Source: Conexibacter sp.
Lineage (GTDB): Bacteria > Actinomycetota > Thermoleophilia > Solirubrobacterales > Solirubrobacteraceae
Direction of reading: 5' to 3'
Assembly (NCBI GenBank): GCA_025964325.1
Contig: JAOPZA010000081.1
Coordinates: 1 to 64,000 of the forward strand
Length of the DNA stretch: 64,000 bases
Shown: positions 21,934 through 29,533 of the stretch, piece after piece
Layout: every line of letters begins with the position of its first letter
How positions within the stretch are numbered: position 1 is the stretch's first letter
Program-made: the position numbers and the translations under genes
Notes under the pieces: model-generated
Seen by the model: the letters and a program-made list of their open reading frames with translations, nothing else
The model's database searches: none
What the model was told of the DNA's origin: nothing

Positions 21934-22971
21934 ATGACGCCGGACGCGCAGCCCCTGCTGATCGACCCGCCGAGCGGGACGGGCGGCGAGCGGCCGGTCT
22001 TCGAGCTGTTCGAGGGCTTCGCGCTCACGAGCGTGCTCGCCTCGCTCGAGCAGGCGGGACTGCTCGCCCGGCTGGAGGGCGGCAGCGTCCCCGCCGACGC
22101 GAGCGAGGGCGAGGACGGCCTGCCGCTCGCGACCCTCCGCTACCTCGCGCAGCGCGGCCTCGTCGACGAGCGCGACGGCGCCTTCTCGCTGTCGGCGCGC
22201 GGGCGCGAGATCTGCCGCGACAAGGGCTACCTCGTCTGGCTTGCCGGCGGCTACGGCGAGGTGCTCGAGAACCTCGGCGCCTTCTCGGCCGGCACCCACC
22301 GCTACGGCGAGGGCGGCGACGTGGTGCGCCGCGGGCGCTGGGTCGCCGAGGGCTCGGCGCTGATCGGACGTGGCGACGTGACGCCGCACGCGACCGAGCT
22401 GCTCGACGGGATCGCGTTCTCGCACGCGGTCGACCTCGGCTGCGGCAACGCGCGCTTCCTGATCGGCGCGGCCAAGCGCTACGGCGCCAGTGGACTCGGC
22501 GTCGACCTCAGCCCCGAGGCGTGCGCCGACGCCGAGCTGGCGATCGCGGCGGCCGGGCTCGAGCAGCAGGTGAGCGTGCGCCGCGGCGACGCCGCCCTGC
22601 TCGACGCGATCCCGACGCTCGACCGCGCGCAGCTGATCGTCGCCTTCTTCCTGCTGCACGAGATCTTCGAGCAGGGCCGCAGCGCGCTCGTCTCCTACCT
22701 GCGCCGGCTCGTGCAGCTGACGCCGGCGGGCGCGTTCATGCTCGTCGCCGAGGTGCAGCCCGCGAGCGGCGCGCCCGACGAGCACTGGCGCCCCGAGTTC
22801 ACGCTGCTCCACGCCGTCATGCGTCAGCAGCTGTTGACCGCCGAAGGCTGGAACGAGGCGTTCGCCGAGGCCGGCTGGCGCGCGCGCGCAGCACGCGACG
22901 TCGACTTGCCGGGCGCGGTCCTGCTGCTCTACGAGAACGTCGCGCACGGACGCGGCACGGGGGGTGTCTGA
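21934..22971 (+). CDS. SAM-dependent methyltransferase
   Basis: A 345-aa class I methyltransferase. The N-terminal 110 residues look like the winged-helix dimerisation domain of O-methyltransferases (FELFEGFALTSVLASLEQAG, LRYLAQRGLVDERDG). The SAM site is AVDLGCGNARFL (about residue 165), followed by acidic GVDLSPEA and a motif IV-like LIVAFFLLHEIFEQG. It should methylate a small molecule in the cytosol. It heads an operon with a cupin and MhpF, MhpE and MhpD, so its substrate may be a precursor or product of that pathway. The stop overlaps or nearly abuts the cupin start. Confidence 0.8.
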   Translation: MTPDAQPLLIDPPSGTGGERPVFELFEGFALTSVLASLEQAGLLARLEGGSVPADASEGEDGLPLATLRYLAQRGLVDERDGAFSLSARGREICRDKGYLVWLAGGYGEVLENLGAFSAGTHRYGEGGDVVRRGRWVAEGSALIGRGDVTPHATELLDGIAFSHAVDLGCGNARFLIGAAKRYGASGLGVDLSPEACADAELAIAAAGLEQQVSVRRGDAALLDAIPTLDRAQLIVAFFLLHEIFEQGRSALVSYLRRLVQLTPAGAFMLVAEVQPASGAPDEHWRPEFTLLHAVMRQQLLTAEGWNEAFAEAGWRARAARDVDLPGAVLLLYENVAHGRGTGGV

Positions 22972-22972
22972 C

Positions 22973-23392
22973 ATGCAGGTGGCCGAGCGATCCGGGCTCG
23001 TCATCACACAGGGGCTGCCGGTCTACGAGGAGATGGACGGCCATCACGAGCCGGCGCCGATCTACCTCAGCCCGGAGACGCTGCCCGGCGTCCCGTTCCG
23101 CATCGCCGTCGTCGACGCCGCGCAGCTGGTCGGCTCGCCGCACGCGGACCTCCACGTCCACCACGAGCACGACGAGATCTACCTCGTCGCGACGGCCGGC
23201 TGCCGCTTCACGGTCGAGACCGACGCCGACCGCGTCGAGCTCGCCTCGCCCGCCTCGATCCTGATCCCCGCCGGCACGCCGCACCGCCTCGTCGTGCACG
23301 CGGTCGAGACCGACACCTGCCCGTTCCTCGGGATTCTCGTGGAACCTCTCGGCCAGAGGCCGAGAGGTTCCACGGAGGACGGTGCGCTGTGA
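22973..23392 (+). CDS. Single-domain cupin
   Basis: A 139-aa cupin beta-barrel protein. Motif 1 is DLHVHHEHDEIYLV with metal-ligand histidines and a Glu, and motif 2 includes ILIPAGTPHRLVVH with the last His, so a metal site is intact. It could be a small dioxygenase, isomerase or ligand-binding protein acting on the same intermediate as its neighbours. A GTG nine bases upstream (22964), overlapping the methyltransferase stop, is an alternative start; I prefer the ATG because GGGGGG sits about 8 nt before it. Its 3' end contains a perfect 16-bp inverted repeat. Confidence 0.78.
   Translation: MQVAERSGLVITQGLPVYEEMDGHHEPAPIYLSPETLPGVPFRIAVVDAAQLVGSPHADLHVHHEHDEIYLVATAGCRFTVETDADRVELASPASILIPAGTPHRLVVHAVETDTCPFLGILVEPLGQRPRGSTEDGAL
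23339..23373 (+). promoter_or_regulatory. Perfect 16-bp hairpin abutting the mhpF RBS
   Basis: GTGGAACCTCTCGGCC (23339-23354) and its exact reverse complement (23358-23373) flank the 3-nt loop AGA, inside the last codons of the cupin gene. The stem ends one base before GGAGGA (23374-23379), the Shine-Dalgarno of mhpF. It may tune translation or protect or process the mRNA; an operator is also possible. Confidence 0.6.
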
Positions 23393-24369
23393 GCGCGGGG
23401 GCGACCCGTGGCGGAGGTGTCCGCGACCGCGGCAGCCGCTGGCGGCGGCGTCGCCGCTGGAGCGGCTCGACGTCGCACGGACGGCTGCGCGTCGGCATCG
23501 TCGGCACCGGCAACATCGGCACCGACCTGATGCTCAAGGTGGTGCGCTCGCCGCTGCTCGACTGCACGCTCTTCGTCGGGCGCAACCTCGACTCGGCCGG
23601 GATGCGCAGGGCGGCGTCGCTCGGCGTCCCCGTCTCCGATGGGCGGATCGACGCGATCGTGCAGGACCCGGGTCGGTTCGACCTCGTCTTCGACGCGACC
23701 TCGGCGCAGGACGCGACCCGCCACTGGGCGATCCTCTCGGAGCTGGGGCTGCCGGTGATCGACCTCACGCCGGCGAAGCTCGGCAAGCTCTGCATCCCGG
23801 CGCTCAACCTCGCCGAGTGCATAGGCGAGCCCAACCTCTGCATGGTGACCTGCGGCGGTCAGGCGGCCGTCCCGCTGGCGCACTGCATCGTGCGGACGCA
23901 GCCGCAGGTCGGGTACGTCGAGATCGTCTCGACCAGCGCGGCGCGCAGCGTCGGCCCGGCGACGCGGGTCAACATCGACGAGTACCTCGCGACGACCGAG
24001 GCGGCGGTCGGGCGCTTCTGCCACGTCGGGCGGGCGAAGTCGATCCTCGTCGTGAATCCGTCGAACCCGCCGATCAAGATGCAGAACACGGTCTTCGCGA
24101 AGGCCGAGGAGGTCGACATGCCGGCCCTGCGCGCCGCGGTCGACGAGATGGTCGCGCGGATCCAGGCGTACGTGCCCGGCTACCGGCTGGTCGTGCCGCC
24201 GATCCACGAGAACGGTCGCATCGCGATCACGGTGCAGGTGGCCGGCGCGGGCGACTACCTGCCGGAGTACGCCGGGAATCTGGACATCATCACCTGCGCC
24301 GCGGTCGCCGCGGCGGAGGAGAGCGCGCGGGCCTTCCGTCAGGAAGCGACCGTCGCGACACACGGCTGA
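23389..24369 (+). CDS. mhpF: Acetaldehyde dehydrogenase (acylating)
   Basis: A 326-aa MhpF/DmpF-type enzyme that converts acetaldehyde, CoA and NAD+ to acetyl-CoA. The NAD-binding loop is GIVGTGNIGTDLM, the catalytic Cys is in MVTCGGQAAVPLAH, and NPSNPPIKMQNTVFA is characteristic. It should form a channelling complex with the aldolase encoded next. The start is GTG in a GTGA overlap with the cupin stop, with GGAGGA 9 nt upstream. The first 30 residues (Arg-rich, low complexity) are an extension beyond the usual N-terminus, but no other start codon lies in frame before the Rossmann motif. Confidence 0.92.
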   Translation: MSAGATRGGGVRDRGSRWRRRRRWSGSTSHGRLRVGIVGTGNIGTDLMLKVVRSPLLDCTLFVGRNLDSAGMRRAASLGVPVSDGRIDAIVQDPGRFDLVFDATSAQDATRHWAILSELGLPVIDLTPAKLGKLCIPALNLAECIGEPNLCMVTCGGQAAVPLAHCIVRTQPQVGYVEIVSTSAARSVGPATRVNIDEYLATTEAAVGRFCHVGRAKSILVVNPSNPPIKMQNTVFAKAEEVDMPALRAAVDEMVARIQAYVPGYRLVVPPIHENGRIAITVQVAGAGDYLPEYAGNLDIITCAAVAAAEESARAFRQEATVATHG

Positions 24370-24390: not shown

Positions 24391-25446
24391 ATGACACAGA
24401 TCCTGATCAGCGATCCGACGCTGCGGGACGGCAACCACGCCGTCGCGCACCAGCTCGACGGCGAGCAGATCCGCGCCTACGCAGCGGCGGCGAACGCCGC
24501 CGGCGTGCCGATCGTCGAGGTCGGGCACGGCAACGGGCTGGGCGCGTCCTCGCTGCAGGTCGGCGAGGCGCGGCTGAGCGACGCCGAGATGCTGCGGATC
24601 GCCCGCGAGGAGCTGACCGACGTCAAGCTCGGGGCGTTCGCGATCCCGGGCTTCGCGACGATGCGGCGCGACCTCGACATGGCGATCGCCGCCGGCAGCG
24701 ACGTCTTCCGCGTCGGCGCGCACTGCACCGAGGCCGACCTGACCGAGCGCCACATCGGCTACCTGCGCGACGCCGGCAGAGAGGTCTACGGCGTGCTGAT
24801 GATGAGTCACATGGCGCCGCCCGAACGGCTCTGCGAGGAGGCGCTGAAGATGGAGTCCTACGGCGCCCAGGGCGTGATCGTGATGGACTCGGCGGGCGCC
24901 TTCCTGACCGACGACCTGCGCGCGAAGATCGCCGCGCTCGTCGACGCGACCTCGATCGCGATCGGCTTCCACGGGCACAACAACCTCTGCCTCGCGGTCG
25001 CCAACTCGGTCGCCGCCGTGAACGAGGGCGCGACGATCCTCGACGGCACCGCGCGCGGCTTCGGCGCGGGCGCCGGCAACACCGAGCTCGAGGTGCTGAT
25101 CGCGGTCCTCGCCGAGCTCGGCCACGACACCGCGATAGACCTCTACAAGGTGCTCGACGCCGCCGACCTGGCGGAGCGCGAGCTCGTGCAGCAGCTGCCG
25201 CGCACCGACTCGGTCGGGATCGTCAGCGGCCTCGCGGGCGTCTTCTCCGGCTACTCCAAGCCGGTGCGGCGGATCGCGAAGGACTTCGGAGTTGACCCGC
25301 GCGACGTCTTCTTCGCGCTCGGGAGACGGGAGGTGATCGCCGGCCAGGAGGACGTGATCCTCGAGGTCGCGACCGCCCTGCGCGACGCGGTCGAGCGGAT
25401 TGGGCACAACGACACCGGGGGGACGTTCGATGGCCACGCAAACTGA
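24391..25446 (+). CDS. mhpE: 4-hydroxy-2-oxovalerate aldolase
   Basis: A 351-aa HMGL-like TIM-barrel aldolase that splits 4-hydroxy-2-oxovalerate into pyruvate and acetaldehyde. It begins with ISDPTLRDGNHAVAHQ (metal Asp and catalytic Arg), continues with VEVGHGNGLG, and has the metal-binding GFHGHNNLCLAVANS. The C-terminal domain carries the communication region that binds the acetaldehyde dehydrogenase partner. It lies 21 bp after mhpF with GGGGGAG before the ATG. The stop overlaps mhpD by 17 bp, so the three genes form one transcription unit. Confidence 0.94.
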   Translation: MTQILISDPTLRDGNHAVAHQLDGEQIRAYAAAANAAGVPIVEVGHGNGLGASSLQVGEARLSDAEMLRIAREELTDVKLGAFAIPGFATMRRDLDMAIAAGSDVFRVGAHCTEADLTERHIGYLRDAGREVYGVLMMSHMAPPERLCEEALKMESYGAQGVIVMDSAGAFLTDDLRAKIAALVDATSIAIGFHGHNNLCLAVANSVAAVNEGATILDGTARGFGAGAGNTELEVLIAVLAELGHDTAIDLYKVLDAADLAERELVQQLPRTDSVGIVSGLAGVFSGYSKPVRRIAKDFGVDPRDVFFALGRREVIAGQEDVILEVATALRDAVERIGHNDTGGTFDGHAN

Positions 25447-26263
25447 ACGGCGGCCGCACGCCGCGCTGCTCGAGGCGGCCGCGCTGACGCCGCACCACGA
25501 GGCGCTCGCGCGGCTGCTGTGGCACGCCGAGCTGCGGGGCGAGCCGGTCGAGCCGCTGAGCGCGACCTTCCCCGAGCTCGACGTCGCCGACGCGTACCGC
25601 GTCCAGGCGATCGGCCGCCGGCTGCGGACTGCCGGGGGCGAGGAGCTGCGCGGGTGGAAGGTCGGCCTCACGAGTCGCGCGATGCAGGAGATGATGGGCG
25701 TCGAGGAGCCCGACGGCGGCTACCTGTTCGAGTCGATGGTCGTCCAGAGCGGCGCGTCGATTCGCGCGTCGCGCTTCATCCAGCCGCGCGTCGAGGCGGA
25801 GATCGCGTTCCTGCTCAAGAGCGGGCTGGAGGGGCCCTGCACCACGCGCGAGGACGTGCTCGACGCGACGCTGGCGTTCGCGCCCGCGCTCGAGCTGATC
25901 GACAGCCGCATCTGCGGCTGGCGCATCGGGATCGTCGACACGGTCGCGGACAACGCCTCCTCGGGGATGGCCGCGATCGGCGAGTGGCACGACGCCGAGC
26001 GCTTGCGCGCGGAGCGGATCGAGGTCGACCTGACGGTCGGCGGCGAGCAGGTCCGCGGCCGCGGCGACGCCGTGCTCGGCCACCCGGCGGAGGCGGTCGC
26101 GTGGCTCGTGCGGACGCTCGCCGATCAGGGCGAGCGGCTCGAGCCGGGCGACATCGTGCTGCCGGGCTCGGTCGCGCGCGCCCTGCCGATCGCGGCCGGC
26201 CAGCGTGCGCACGCGCGCTTCGACGGCCTCGGGGAGGTCCGCGTCGGCCTCGTGCACGACTGA
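25430..26263 (+). CDS. mhpD: 2-oxopent-4-enoate (2-hydroxypentadienoate) hydratase
   Basis: A 277-aa hydratase of the MhpD/DmpE family that adds water to 2-hydroxypenta-2,4-dienoate to give 4-hydroxy-2-oxovalerate for the aldolase. Characteristic segments are GWKVGLTSRAMQEMMGV, QPRVEAEIAFLL with metal-binding acidic residues, and ALELIDSRI. ATG 25430 overlaps the mhpE 3' end. Together MhpD, MhpE and MhpF form the complete lower meta-cleavage route, but no ring-cleavage dioxygenase or C-C hydrolase gene lies in the operon. Decarboxylase relatives (4-oxalocrotonate decarboxylase) share the fold, so a related activity is possible. Confidence 0.92.
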   Translation: MATQTERRPHAALLEAAALTPHHEALARLLWHAELRGEPVEPLSATFPELDVADAYRVQAIGRRLRTAGGEELRGWKVGLTSRAMQEMMGVEEPDGGYLFESMVVQSGASIRASRFIQPRVEAEIAFLLKSGLEGPCTTREDVLDATLAFAPALELIDSRICGWRIGIVDTVADNASSGMAAIGEWHDAERLRAERIEVDLTVGGEQVRGRGDAVLGHPAEAVAWLVRTLADQGERLEPGDIVLPGSVARALPIAAGQRAHARFDGLGEVRVGLVHD

Positions 26264-26299: not shown

Positions 26300-29200
26300 G
26301 TGATCGCGACCACGCGCGAGCCGCACCGACCGGTCGCGAAGCGACCCGACTTCCCGGCGCTCGAGGCGCGCGTGCTCGAGCGCTGGCGCAGCGGGCGCGT
26401 CTTCGAGCGCTCGCTCGCCGCGCGCGCCGGCGGCCCCATCTTCTCATTCTCCGAGGGACCGCCGACCGCGAACGGCGATCCGGGCGCGCATCACGTGCTG
26501 CTGCGCTCCTTCAAGGACTTCTTCATGCGCTACAAGACGATGCGCGGCTATCGCGTGCCACGCAAGGCCGGCTGGGACTGCCACGGCCTGCCCGTCGAGC
26601 TGAGCGTCGAGCAGCAGCTCGGGCTCGACTCGAAGCAGGAGATCGAGCGCTACGGCGTCGCCGCGTTCAACGCCCGCTGCCGCGAGTCGAACGAGCACTA
26701 CATCGCGCGCTGGGAGCAGCTGACGGAGCGGATCGGCTTCTGGATCGACCTCGAGCACGCCTTCCGCACGTCGGATCCGGAGTACGTCGAGTCGGTCTGG
26801 TGGTCGCTCCACGAGCTGTGGGACCGCGGCCTGCTCTACGAGGGCCACAAGGTCGTCCCCTACTGCCCGCGCTGCGGGACCGCGCTCTCCTCGCACGAGG
26901 TCGCGCAGGGCTACGCCGAGGTCGAGGACCTCGCGGTCACCGTGCGCCTGCCGGTGACCGAGCTGCGCGGGCCGCTGGCGCCGGGCGACGCGCTGCTGAT
27001 CTGGACGACGATGCCGTGGACGCTGTTCGCCAACGCGGCCGTCGCCGTCGATCCGGAGATCGCCTACGTGCGGGCGCGCGTCGGCGACGAGGTGCTGGTG
27101 GTCGCGGAGGAGCGCGTCGGGGACGTGCTCGGCGACGGCGCCGAGCTGCTCGACCGCTTCGCCGGCCGCGCGATCGTCGACGCGCGCTACGCGCCGCCGT
27201 TCGACGACCTGCCCGACCACGGGCCGCGCGGCCACTCCGTCCTCGCGGCCCCGCACGTGAGGGTCGAGAAGGGCACGGGCCTCGTCCACACGGCGATGGC
27301 GTTCGGCGAGGAGGACTACATCCTCTGCGAGCGCCACGGCATCACGCTGCAGAACCCGGTTCGCGCCGACGGCACCTACGACGAGCGGATCCGCGGCTAC
27401 GAGGGCGTCTTCGTCGGTGACGCCAACCCGCGCATCGTCGCGCGGCTGCGCGACGCCGGGAAGCTGTGGCAGGCCGCGCCGGTCACGCACAGCTACCCGC
27501 ACTGCTGGCGCTGCCACGAGCGGCTGCTCTACTACGCGAAGGAGAGCTGGTACGTCGCCACCCGCGAGGAGCGCCACGACATGCTCGCCCACAACGCGCG
27601 GATCGACTGGCGACCCGGCCACGTGCGCGACGGCCGCTTCGGCAACTGGCTGCAGGGCAACGTCGACTGGGCGCTCTCGCGCGACCGCTACTGGGGCACG
27701 CCGCTGCCGATCTGGCAGTGCGACGCGGAGGACTGCCGCACGCGCCACTGCGTCGGCTCGCTCGTCGAGCTGCGGGAGCTGGCGGGCGAGCTGCCGCCGG
27801 ACCTGCACCGGCCCTACATCGACGAGGTCGCGTGGCGCTGCGCGGTCGCCGGCTGCGGCGGCACGATGCGGCGCCTGAAGGCGACGATCGACACCTGGTA
27901 CGACTCGGCCTGCATGCCGTTCGCGCAGTTCCACTACCCGTTCGGGGGGCGGCGCGAGGTCGCCGAGCAGTTCCCCGCCGACTTCATATGCGAGGGGATC
28001 GACCAGACGCGCGGCTGGTTCTACACCTCGCTCGCCTGCTCGACGCTGCTGTTCGACGACATCCCGTTCAAGACCGCGATCTGCATCGGGCACGTGCAGG
28101 ACGAGCACGGCCACAAGATGTCCAAGAGCCGCGGCAACGCCGTCGACCCGTGGGCGATCCTCGAGCGCCATGGCGCCGACGCGTTCCGCTGGTACTACCT
28201 CGCCTCGCAGCAGCCGTGGGCCGGCTACCGCTTCTCGGAGGAGGCGGTCGCCGCCGCCGTGCGCGAGCTGCTGCTGCCGCTCTGGACGACGTACGGCTTC
28301 TACGTCCTCTACGCCAACATCGAGCGCTTCGACGGCGACGAGGGTCGCCCGCAGGGTCGGCCGGTGCCGCCGCTCGCGGCCCGGCCGCCGCTCGACCGCT
28401 GGGTGCTCTCGCGGCTGCAGGAGGTGGTCGCGACGATGCGCGAGCGGATCGACGCCTTCGACGCAACCGCCGCGACGCAGATCGCCGTCGCGTGGGTCGA
28501 GGAGCTGTCGAACTGGTACGTGCGGCTCTCGCGCCGGCGCTTCTGGAACGGCGACGTGGCCGCGCTCGCGACGCTGCGCGAGTGCCTGCTGACGACGGCG
28601 AAGCTGCTCGCGCCGGCGATCCCGTTCGCCGCCGAGGAGCTGTACGGCAACCTCGTCGGCGGTCTCAGCGGCGACTTCGGCGCCGAACCCGACTCGGTCC
28701 ATCTGTGCGACTACCCGGAGCCCGATCCGGCGAAGGTCGACGCGCAGCTCGACGCCGACATGGAGATCGTGCGCGAGGCGATCGAGCTGGGCCGCGACGC
28801 GCGCAACCGCTCGAAGGTGAAGGTCCGCCAGCCGCTCCCGCGCGCGATCGTCTGCAGCGCCGACCCCAGCTGCCGCACGGCGGTGCGGCGGCTGCGCGAC
28901 CTGGTCGCCGCCGAGCTGAACGTGAAGGCGGTCGAGCTGGTCGCCGACGCGACCGCGCTCGAGCGCACGGCGATGCTGCCGAGCCTCGGGCGCCTCGGCC
29001 CTCGCTGCGGGCCCGACATGCCGGCGGTCGCGGCGCTGATCCGCGCGCGCGACGGCGACGAGGTGCTGCGGGCGCTGGAGGAGCACGGCGTCGTGACGGT
29101 GACCGTCGGCGGCCAGACGCTGCTCGACGAGTCGCGCACCTACGCGCTGGCGGAGAACGACCTGCTGCGGCGGCGCGAGCCGCGCGAGGGCCTCGTCGTC

Positions 29201-29533
29201 TCGACGCGCGGGGTGCTGACGGTCGCCGTCGACACGACGATCGACGAGCCGCTGCGCGACGAGGGGCTCGCGCGCGAGATCGTCCGCGTCGTGCAGCAGG
29301 CCCGCCGCGACGCCGGTGTGGCGGTCACCGACCGGATCGAGCTGCGGCTCGGCGGCAGCGAGGACCTGCTGGCGGCGGCCCGCACGCACGAGGGCTACGT
29401 CGCGGAGGAGACGCTCGCCACCGCCGTGGTCTACGACGGCCTGCGCGGGCCGCAGGTGCAGGTCGACGGGCGCGCGCTCGCCGTCGAGGTCGTGCCGGCG
29501 CCGGCGGGCGCGGGCGCCGGCGCGGGCCGCTAG
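26300..29533 (+). CDS. ileS: Isoleucyl-tRNA synthetase, type 2, with GxHH motif
   Basis: A 1077-aa IleRS that charges tRNA-Ile. The catalytic core has GPPTANGDPGAHHV, where the class I HxGH position reads G62-A-H-H65, and a normal KMSKS loop (GHKMSKSRGN). The editing domain contains the Thr-rich WTTMPWTL segment, and CPRCGTAL is a zinc site in the insertion. The C-terminus lacks the zinc finger of type 1 IleRS, placing it in the eukaryote-like type 2 group. GxHH variants of IleRS2 are known to give strong mupirocin resistance. The GTG start has GGGAGG upstream. It follows mhpD by 36 bp, so it may belong to that operon; no T-box fits in the gap. Confidence 0.95.
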   Translation: MIATTREPHRPVAKRPDFPALEARVLERWRSGRVFERSLAARAGGPIFSFSEGPPTANGDPGAHHVLLRSFKDFFMRYKTMRGYRVPRKAGWDCHGLPVELSVEQQLGLDSKQEIERYGVAAFNARCRESNEHYIARWEQLTERIGFWIDLEHAFRTSDPEYVESVWWSLHELWDRGLLYEGHKVVPYCPRCGTALSSHEVAQGYAEVEDLAVTVRLPVTELRGPLAPGDALLIWTTMPWTLFANAAVAVDPEIAYVRARVGDEVLVVAEERVGDVLGDGAELLDRFAGRAIVDARYAPPFDDLPDHGPRGHSVLAAPHVRVEKGTGLVHTAMAFGEEDYILCERHGITLQNPVRADGTYDERIRGYEGVFVGDANPRIVARLRDAGKLWQAAPVTHSYPHCWRCHERLLYYAKESWYVATREERHDMLAHNARIDWRPGHVRDGRFGNWLQGNVDWALSRDRYWGTPLPIWQCDAEDCRTRHCVGSLVELRELAGELPPDLHRPYIDEVAWRCAVAGCGGTMRRLKATIDTWYDSACMPFAQFHYPFGGRREVAEQFPADFICEGIDQTRGWFYTSLACSTLLFDDIPFKTAICIGHVQDEHGHKMSKSRGNAVDPWAILERHGADAFRWYYLASQQPWAGYRFSEEAVAAAVRELLLPLWTTYGFYVLYANIERFDGDEGRPQGRPVPPLAARPPLDRWVLSRLQEVVATMRERIDAFDATAATQIAVAWVEELSNWYVRLSRRRFWNGDVAALATLRECLLTTAKLLAPAIPFAAEELYGNLVGGLSGDFGAEPDSVHLCDYPEPDPAKVDAQLDADMEIVREAIELGRDARNRSKVKVRQPLPRAIVCSADPSCRTAVRRLRDLVAAELNVKAVELVADATALERTAMLPSLGRLGPRCGPDMPAVAALIRARDGDEVLRALEEHGVVTVTVGGQTLLDESRTYALAENDLLRRREPREGLVVSTRGVLTVAVDTTIDEPLRDEGLAREIVRVVQQARRDAGVAVTDRIELRLGGSEDLLAAARTHEGYVAEETLATAVVYDGLRGPQVQVDGRALAVEVVPAPAGAGAGAGR

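What the first reader, a model, noticed from the sequence alone, without database searches (positions are those of the whole stretch)
26483..26494. IleRS with a swapped GxHH signature
The class I signature normally read HxGH is G-A-H-H at residues 62-65, in an otherwise complete type 2 IleRS with an intact KMSKS loop. GxHH forms of IleRS2 have been reported to confer very high mupirocin resistance. Finding one here in a likely Solirubrobacterales genome, downstream of a small metabolic operon, raises the question whether it is the only IleRS or a resistance copy.
Basis: partly seen in the sequence, partly recalled or inferred. Interest (0 to 1): 0.65.

Follow-up and report, generated by a model that had tools for sequence, protein, structure and literature searches.

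The report
Second IleRS in isoleucine-analogue gene cluster
The swapped active-site motif is ordinary for this bacterial order and already published, but the gene is a dedicated second isoleucyl-tRNA synthetase fixed at the end of a small operon whose enzymes look able to build an isoleucine look-alike, so it is more likely a self-protection gene for a home-made amino acid than a mupirocin-resistance gene.

Summary
In detail: gene 26300-29533 (+) encodes a complete type 2 IleRS with GAHH at residues 62-65 (26483-26494) and KMSKS at 606. The motif itself is not news. GxHH occurs in every intact motif I read in the order, and in the genome's other, housekeeping IleRS (GVHH, contig C94); Brkic et al. 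2023 describe G/AXHH as a common IleRS2 form with millimolar mupirocin Ki. So "a mupirocin-resistance copy" is not supported. The context is new. Five of seven add an AlaX-type tRNA deacylase directly before it. The chemistry predicts a straight C5 keto acid methylated at C3, the isoleucine skeleton. Best reading: the operon makes an isoleucine analogue (4,5-dehydro- or 4-hydroxyisoleucine) and the paralogous IleRS, with the deacylase where present, protects the producer. Product and enzyme activities are inferred, not shown. Other genera sampled lack the cluster.

The parts
21934..22971 (+). SAM-dependent alpha-keto-acid beta-C-methyltransferase (SgvM/MppJ/MrsA family)
   Evidence: profile of 7 orthologues hits SgvM 8ftr, MppJ 4kib, MrsA 8r4z at E 1e-19 to 1e-23 and no other methyltransferase better than E 4e-8; metal ligands H242, E243, H293 aligned and invariant
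22964..23392 (+). small metal-binding cupin, MarH/StnK3-like beta-methyl-2-oxo-acid epimerase candidate
   Evidence: profile hits PDB 6j4b and 7eqk cupins at E 4e-19; H64, H66, E71, H107 invariant; overlaps the methyltransferase stop
23389..24369 (+). acylating acetaldehyde dehydrogenase (DmpF/BphJ)
   Evidence: TIGR03215, 355 bits, cut-off 282
24391..25446 (+). 4-hydroxy-2-oxovalerate aldolase (DmpG/BphI) with DmpG communication domain
   Evidence: TIGR03217, 360 bits, cut-off 286; PF07836; PDB 1nvm E 1e-72
25400..26263 (+). 2-oxopent-4-enoate hydratase-like protein (DmpE/MhpD family; might work as dehydratase here; true start may be downstream of the TTG)
   Evidence: PDB 8ih6 2-oxopent-4-enoate hydratase E 3e-50; TIGR03220 217 bits, below equivalog cut-off 409
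26300..29533 (+). IleRSb: second, dedicated type 2 isoleucyl-tRNA synthetase
   Evidence: TIGR00392 812 bits; DUF5915 type 2 C-terminal domain; orthologue in the same place in all 7 genus genomes
26450..26452 (+). S51 (T. thermophilus Y43 position): aromatic in 68/68 other IleRS2, S or I in all 6 IleRSb that cover it
26483..26494 (+). GAHH signature (residues 62-65) at the HIGH position
27011..27013 (+). M238 (Tth T230; taken as the E. coli T243 position of the editing site): Q in 6 and M in 1 IleRSb, T in 65/68 others
   Evidence: T243R/D342A is the editing-dead E. coli mutant in PMC9023258
27908..27910 (+). A537 (Tth G522, four residues after the substrate-pocket W518): A in 7/7 IleRSb, G in 68/68 others
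28115..28129 (+). KMSKS loop, residues 606-610

Best explanation
The gene is IleRSb, a stable second IleRS, separate from the housekeeping IleRS, that serves a biosynthetic operon. Proposed mechanism: DmpF reduces acetyl-CoA to acetaldehyde; DmpG adds it to pyruvate to give 4-hydroxy-2-oxopentanoate; the DmpE-like enzyme may dehydrate it to 2-oxopent-4-enoate or its dienol; the methyltransferase methylates C3, giving the carbon skeleton of isoleucine; the cupin sets the C3 configuration; a general branched-chain aminotransferase (not in the operon) would give 4,5-dehydroisoleucine or, without dehydration, 4-hydroxyisoleucine. Some such analogues are charged by ordinary IleRS and disturb translation. 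IleRSb, made from the same operon, would keep tRNA-Ile correctly charged by refusing or editing the analogue, and in five of seven species an AlaX-type deacylase would clear mischarged tRNA. Shown here: the gene content, conservation, family assignments and lineage. Inferred: direction of the pathway, the product, and the protective role.
For: Two complete IleRS in the genome and in 6 of 7 genus genomes, including the single-contig G002, so not contamination; the seventh, G001, is 77% complete. Six-gene order MT-cupin-DmpF-DmpG-DmpE-IleRSb kept in all 7 genomes while upstream neighbours change. MT belongs by profile to alpha-keto-acid beta-C-methyltransferases with metal ligands kept; the cupin resembles solved small cupins, and a C-methyltransferase plus a ~130-aa cupin epimerase is the known MarI-MarH / StnQ1-StnK3 pair acting on beta-methyl 2-oxo acids (PMC4742848). 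DmpF and DmpG pass curated cut-offs. AlaX-like gene directly before IleRSb in 5/7; other matches in 61 relatives are in alaS-length frames. [quoted passage not shown] coli IleRS and was incorporated with over 70% efficiency, the (2S,3R) form was not (PMC12123629), which would fit the need for an epimerase. IleRSb is monophyletic on a long stem and has site changes next to the substrate pocket and in the editing site, with dN/dS 0.30-0.63 against 0.29-0.46 for the housekeeping copies, so it is maintained. Ordinary ilvA, ilvC, ilvD are present, so the operon is not needed for isoleucine itself.
Against: No aminotransferase, transporter or regulator is conserved in the operon. The AlaX gene is missing from the window genome and not found in G001. 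The residues that hold isoleucine in T. thermophilus IleRS (P46, D85, W518, Q554, W558; from general knowledge) are unchanged, so discrimination against an analogue is not visible in first-shell residues. The editing change (T to Q/M) also occurs in 3 of 68 other IleRS2. Genus-wide synteny can keep unrelated neighbours together: the helicase next door is also kept. The hydratase scores below its equivalog cut-off and these three Dmp enzymes usually run in the catabolic direction. No such metabolite is known to me from these bacteria.
Confidence: 0.55

Rival explanations
1. IleRSb is a mupirocin-resistance copy: the GxHH motif blocks mupirocin and the gene is kept for that.
For: G/AXHH gives millimolar mupirocin Ki in other IleRS2 (PMC10485003); it is a second IleRS in the genome.
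Against: The housekeeping copy is also GxHH and so is every intact order relative read, so the second copy adds nothing predicted against mupirocin. It is far from MupA/MupB (711 and 745 bits, cut-off 1900). The operon context is unrelated to resistance to an external drug.
Confidence: 0.06
2. IleRSb deliberately charges tRNA with the non-standard amino acid, to feed a tRNA-dependent peptide or amide ligase in a natural-product pathway.
For: Dedicated synthetases occur in natural-product clusters (family knowledge); IleRSb has an altered editing Thr, which could help keep an unusual aminoacyl-tRNA.
Against: No tRNA-dependent transferase or ligase is found in the conserved operon; an adjacent deacylase in 5/7 genomes would work against it.
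Confidence: 0.12
3. The operon is an isoleucine-supply or salvage route (or makes isoleucine itself) and IleRSb is simply co-regulated with it.
For: The predicted skeleton is that of isoleucine; a reduction of the 4,5 double bond would give the isoleucine keto acid.
Against: No reductase in the operon; threonine deaminase, IlvC and IlvD are present in the genus (IlvC in the fragmented G001 only as a weak end piece); it does not explain a second synthetase or the deacylase.
Confidence: 0.08
4. The Dmp enzymes are an ordinary aromatic-catabolism tail and the methyltransferase, cupin and IleRS are passengers kept by synteny.
For: DmpE-DmpG-DmpF is the standard lower meta-cleavage route (family knowledge); genus-level synteny is expected to keep some neighbours.
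Against: No ring-cleavage dioxygenase or C-C hydrolase in the conserved block; the genes overlap or nearly touch; six genes stay together at 65-93% protein identity while the upstream flank changes and genes are inserted downstream; close plasmid DmpG relatives also sit in biosynthetic-looking sets in Streptomyces.
Confidence: 0.19

Closest known systems
G/AXHH mupirocin-hyper-resistant type 2 IleRS (S. griseus, D. radiodurans; Brkic et al. 2023, PMC10485003)
   Same: same IleRS type and same swapped signature
   Different: here both copies of the genome have it, and the extra copy is tied to a biosynthetic-looking operon
beta-methyl-amino-acid cassettes MarI-MarH-MarG and StnQ1-StnK3-StnR (PMC4742848)
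   Same: C-methyltransferase plus small cupin epimerase acting on a 2-oxo acid
   Different: substrate there is indolepyruvate; here no aminotransferase gene, and an aldolase/aldehyde dehydrogenase/hydratase set would make the 2-oxo acid de novo
alpha-keto-acid C-methyltransferases SgvM, MppJ, MrsA (PMC10502145; PDB 8ftr, 4kib, 8r4z)
   Same: family by profile; conserved metal ligands
   Different: distant (the plasmid-borne relatives found are about 30% identical) and the predicted substrate is a C5 keto acid
Self-protecting tRNA enzymes of amino-acid-analogue producers, such as fluorothreonyl-tRNA deacylase FthB of S. cattleya (cited in PMC11295145)
   Same: a dedicated tRNA-editing protein in the producer of a toxic amino-acid analogue
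   Different: FthB is related to ProXp-ST1 and works on tRNA-Thr; here an AlaX-type protein plus a whole second IleRS
Furanomycin and 4,5-dehydroisoleucine, isoleucine analogues charged by IleRS (PMC3662646, PMC12123629)
   Same: expected biological effect of the predicted product
   Different: no producer with this operon is known to me; furanomycin has another skeleton

Membership tests
type 2 isoleucyl-tRNA synthetase | ileS equivalog score above cut-off | tested here: met
   TIGR00392 812.4 bits, cut-off 621.4
type 2 isoleucyl-tRNA synthetase | type 2 C-terminal domain, closer to IleRS2 than IleRS1 structures | tested here: met
   DUF5915 found; best hits 8c8w (P. megaterium IleRS2) E 4e-258, against 2e-96 for the type 1 entries 8c9e/8c9f
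G/AXHH hyper-resistant IleRS2 | GxHH at the HIGH position with intact KMSKS | tested here: met
   X = Ala is outside the list Ile/Val/Leu/Met/Tyr in PMC10485003, but Ser, Thr and Ala are common in this phylum
G/AXHH hyper-resistant IleRS2 | millimolar mupirocin Ki | not testable with these tools
   needs purified enzyme
MupA/MupB mobile mupirocin-resistance IleRS | NCBIfam exception-model score above cut-off | tested here: not met
   711 and 745 bits against 1900
alpha-keto-acid beta-C-methyltransferase | best relatives are this family | tested here: met
   SgvM, MppJ, MrsA are the top distinct molecules in the PDB
alpha-keto-acid beta-C-methyltransferase | metal-binding His/acid/His | tested here: met
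   H242, E243, H293 aligned with SgvM and MppJ counterparts and invariant in 7
MarH-type cupin epimerase | small cupin with conserved metal site beside a C-methyltransferase gene | tested here: met
   that 6j4b is MarH is from memory
MarH-type cupin epimerase | epimerase activity at C3 of a 2-oxo acid | not testable with these tools
   needs assay
self-resistance aminoacyl-tRNA synthetase in a biosynthetic cluster | second synthetase genetically fixed to the pathway | tested here: met
   7 of 7 genomes
self-resistance aminoacyl-tRNA synthetase in a biosynthetic cluster | pathway product inhibits or is mischarged by the housekeeping enzyme, not by the paralogue | not testable with these tools
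   product unknown
AlaX trans-editing protein (neighbour gene in 5 of 7 genomes) | AlaX-M model score and zinc ligands | tested here: inconclusive
   NF040865 237 bits, below its cut-off of 300; HxxxH kept but the CGGTH cysteine is Asp in all five

The most novel reading that the evidence does not exclude
A previously unrecognised pathway, fixed in the genus Conexibacter, builds an isoleucine isostere de novo from acetyl-CoA, pyruvate and SAM (aldol addition, dehydration, C3 methylation, epimerisation), and protects its maker with a dedicated IleRS whose synthetic or editing site has been retuned, in most species backed by an AlaX-type deacylase acting on tRNA-Ile.
Probability: 0.4. Interest if true: 0.8.

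Novelty: new variant of a known kind. Interest (0 to 1): 0.6.

Why it matters
If right, a little-studied but cultured soil genus carries a compact recipe for an isoleucine antimetabolite together with its antidote, and offers a natural IleRS/deacylase pair with altered amino-acid selection. It also shows that the swapped signature motif alone should not be read as a resistance marker in this order.

Tried and rejected
Contamination of the assembly as the source of the second IleRS: rejected, both copies occur in six genus genomes including a single-contig one. Recent duplication of the housekeeping gene: rejected by the tree, IleRSb groups with IleRS of another family of the order. Regulation by a T-box or other known RNA element: no Rfam hit in the cluster regions. 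A dedicated tRNA gene beside the cluster: none found. Cluster in other taxa: no close MT in 201 genomes of the order or 397 of the phylum outside the genus, and three next-best MT loci lack the other genes; genome contigs gave only a Solirubrobacterales MAG contig that is the G001 one by length; plasmid MT relatives are about 30% identical, and the three neighbourhoods read lack the Dmp genes. The AlphaFold model of the cupin was too poor to use (pLDDT 48). The 630-aa membrane protein downstream in four genomes is widespread in the order and not part of the unit.

Full report
What is there. The ORF at 26300-29533 (+) encodes 1077 residues with G62-A63-H64-H65 at 26483-26494 and KMSKS from residue 606. 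It passes the ileS model with 812 bits, carries the type 2 C-terminal domain DUF5915, and is far closer to the P. megaterium type 2 structures than to type 1.

Is the motif special? No. Brkic et al. (PMC10485003) describe G/AXHH in 86 of 163 bacterial IleRS2 and link it to millimolar mupirocin Ki. Every Solirubrobacterales IleRS2 whose motif region I read has GxHH, as do the other actinobacterial IleRS2 sampled; GAHH itself recurs in loci L068, L112 and L121. The genome's other IleRS, on contig C94, has GVHH. The swapped motif therefore does not distinguish the two copies, and a specific role of this copy in mupirocin resistance is not supported.

Is it the only IleRS? No. G000 has two complete type 2 IleRS, 55% identical. 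All six other genomes held for the genus carry an orthologue of the window copy (71-86% identity), and five of them also show the housekeeping copy; in the sixth, G001, 77% complete, none was listed. G002 is a single contig of 6,359,369 bp, the published length of Conexibacter woesei ID131577T (PMC3035278), so I take the genus to be Conexibacter in the GTDB sense; this identification rests on length alone.

Where does it come from? In a tree of 75 IleRS2, the seven window-type sequences (IleRSb) form one group (SH-aLRT 100) on a long stem (0.6 changes per column) and fall beside the IleRS of another family of the order (support 99), not beside the housekeeping copies of their own genus, which form a separate group (LG+G4, quick search, no bootstrap). 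It is an old paralogue or an old transfer within the order, then inherited with the genus. Pairwise dN/dS is 0.30-0.63 for IleRSb and 0.29-0.46 for the housekeeping copies, so it is maintained, with somewhat relaxed or altered constraint (simple Nei-Gojobori on very GC-rich genes, so only the comparison counts).

What surrounds it? Upstream on the same strand, with overlaps or short gaps, lie a methyltransferase (21934-22971), a cupin (22964-23392), acylating acetaldehyde dehydrogenase DmpF (23389-24369), 4-hydroxy-2-oxovalerate aldolase DmpG (24391-25446) and a DmpE-like hydratase (25400-26263). The same six genes in the same order are found in all seven genus genomes (in G001 over two contigs), with protein identities of about 65-93%. 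The upstream flank differs (PAP2-lipid kinase fusion here, FMO-like or TerC elsewhere) and extra genes are inserted downstream, while the helicase beyond is kept wherever the stretch reached it; so part of the conservation may be synteny, but the six-gene block is the tightest unit. In five of seven genomes an AlaX-like protein (tRNA_SAD domain) is inserted between hydratase and IleRSb; other matches in 61 relatives lie in alaS-length frames. Its HxxxH zinc motif is kept but the CGGTH cysteine is Asp in all five.

What could the operon make? The methyltransferase profile hits SgvM, MppJ and 2-ketoarginine methyltransferase as its best solved relatives, all alpha-keto-acid beta-C-methyltransferases, and keeps their metal-binding residues (H242, E243, H293). 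The cupin profile hits small solved cupins (6j4b, 7eqk); from memory 6j4b is MarH. In the maremycin and streptonigrin clusters a C-methyltransferase and a ~130-residue cupin epimerase work together on beta-methyl indolepyruvate (PMC4742848). DmpF and DmpG would supply the 2-oxo acid: acetyl-CoA to acetaldehyde, plus pyruvate to 4-hydroxy-2-oxopentanoate; the hydratase could dehydrate it. C3 methylation of a straight C5 2-oxo acid gives the isoleucine skeleton. That the chemistry of the five upstream genes points to an isoleucine isostere, next to an isoleucyl-tRNA synthetase, is the main argument; I knew of the IleRS when I drew it up, so it is not a blind prediction. If propionaldehyde were the aldehyde, the product would be one carbon longer. 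[quoted passage not shown] coli IleRS and was incorporated with more than 70% efficiency, while the (2S,3R) form was not (PMC12123629). Furanomycin is another natural amino acid that acts through charging by IleRS (PMC3662646).

How would IleRSb help? Residues that bind isoleucine and ATP in T. thermophilus IleRS by general knowledge (P46, D85, W518, Q554, W558, KMSKS) and the editing residues H319 and D328 are kept. IleRSb-specific changes lie around them: Y43 to S/I, G522 to A, L562 to S, position 581 from L to I/V/M/F, and in the editing site T230 to Q or M and position 235 to F (T. thermophilus numbering). T243 of E. coli IleRS, which I take to be the same Thr (general knowledge, not aligned here), is part of a standard editing-dead double mutant (PMC9023258). 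Whether these changes reject or remove an analogue is inference. Q or M at position 230 in three of 68 other IleRS2 means that this change alone is not decisive.

Alternatives. A mupirocin role is disfavoured (above). Isoleucine supply is disfavoured because threonine deaminase, IlvC and IlvD are present and no reductase is in the operon. Charging for a tRNA-dependent pathway lacks a partner enzyme. A catabolic tail with passengers is the strongest rival, since these Dmp enzymes are usually catabolic and synteny is a confounder; against it stand the methyltransferase and cupin, the absence of ring-cleavage genes, and the fact that close plasmid relatives of DmpG sit in Streptomyces sets with DmpF, an FAH-family protein, CoA-ester lyase, MaoC and GNAT, with KAS III and ACP in three of the four read, which do not look like ring-cleavage operons either.

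How novel? The motif is already known. Dedicated synthetases and deacylases that protect analogue producers are a known kind. The combination here (aldolase route, beta-methylation, cupin, second IleRS, AlaX-type deacylase) has no match outside the genus in the order and phylum genomes sampled or in the plasmid neighbourhoods read, and my paper searches, limited to an open-access library, turned up no description of it. Function remains to be shown at the bench, and a cultured type strain is available.

Noticed in passing
L042:8104-8913 (+), L041:11309-12094 (-), L043:11124-11891 (-), L044:8849-9712 (+), L045:8717-9550 (+): AlaX-like deacylase with Asp in place of the CGGTH zinc-ligand cysteine, only beside IleRSb in five genomes of the genus, absent from the window genome and not found in G001.
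   Followed up: partly
L139-L142 (Streptomyces plasmids, near dmpG): FAH-family protein, acetaldehyde dehydrogenase and DmpG recur in Streptomyces plasmid gene sets with CoA-ester lyase, MaoC and a GNAT enzyme (and KAS III plus ACP in three of the four): possibly a biosynthetic use of the aldolase module.
   Followed up: no
L042:12351-14276 (+) and orthologues in L043-L045: About 630-aa polytopic membrane protein without Pfam or NCBIfam match, widespread in the order (42 of 101 genomes).
   Followed up: partly
L048:9793-14686 and L049:7368-10409: G023 has two IleRS-like stretches in tandem, the second only 34% identical to IleRSb; G033 has a similar 36% one beside its normal IleRS. They are other second-IleRS cases in the family.
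   Followed up: no
L047:5118-8128 (-): G008 has a second IleRS2 that BLAST splits into two frames (possible frameshift or assembly error).
   Followed up: no
L009:19604-19695 (-): A selenocysteine tRNA lies about 12 kb from the housekeeping ileS on contig C94, so this genome may encode selenoproteins.
   Followed up: no
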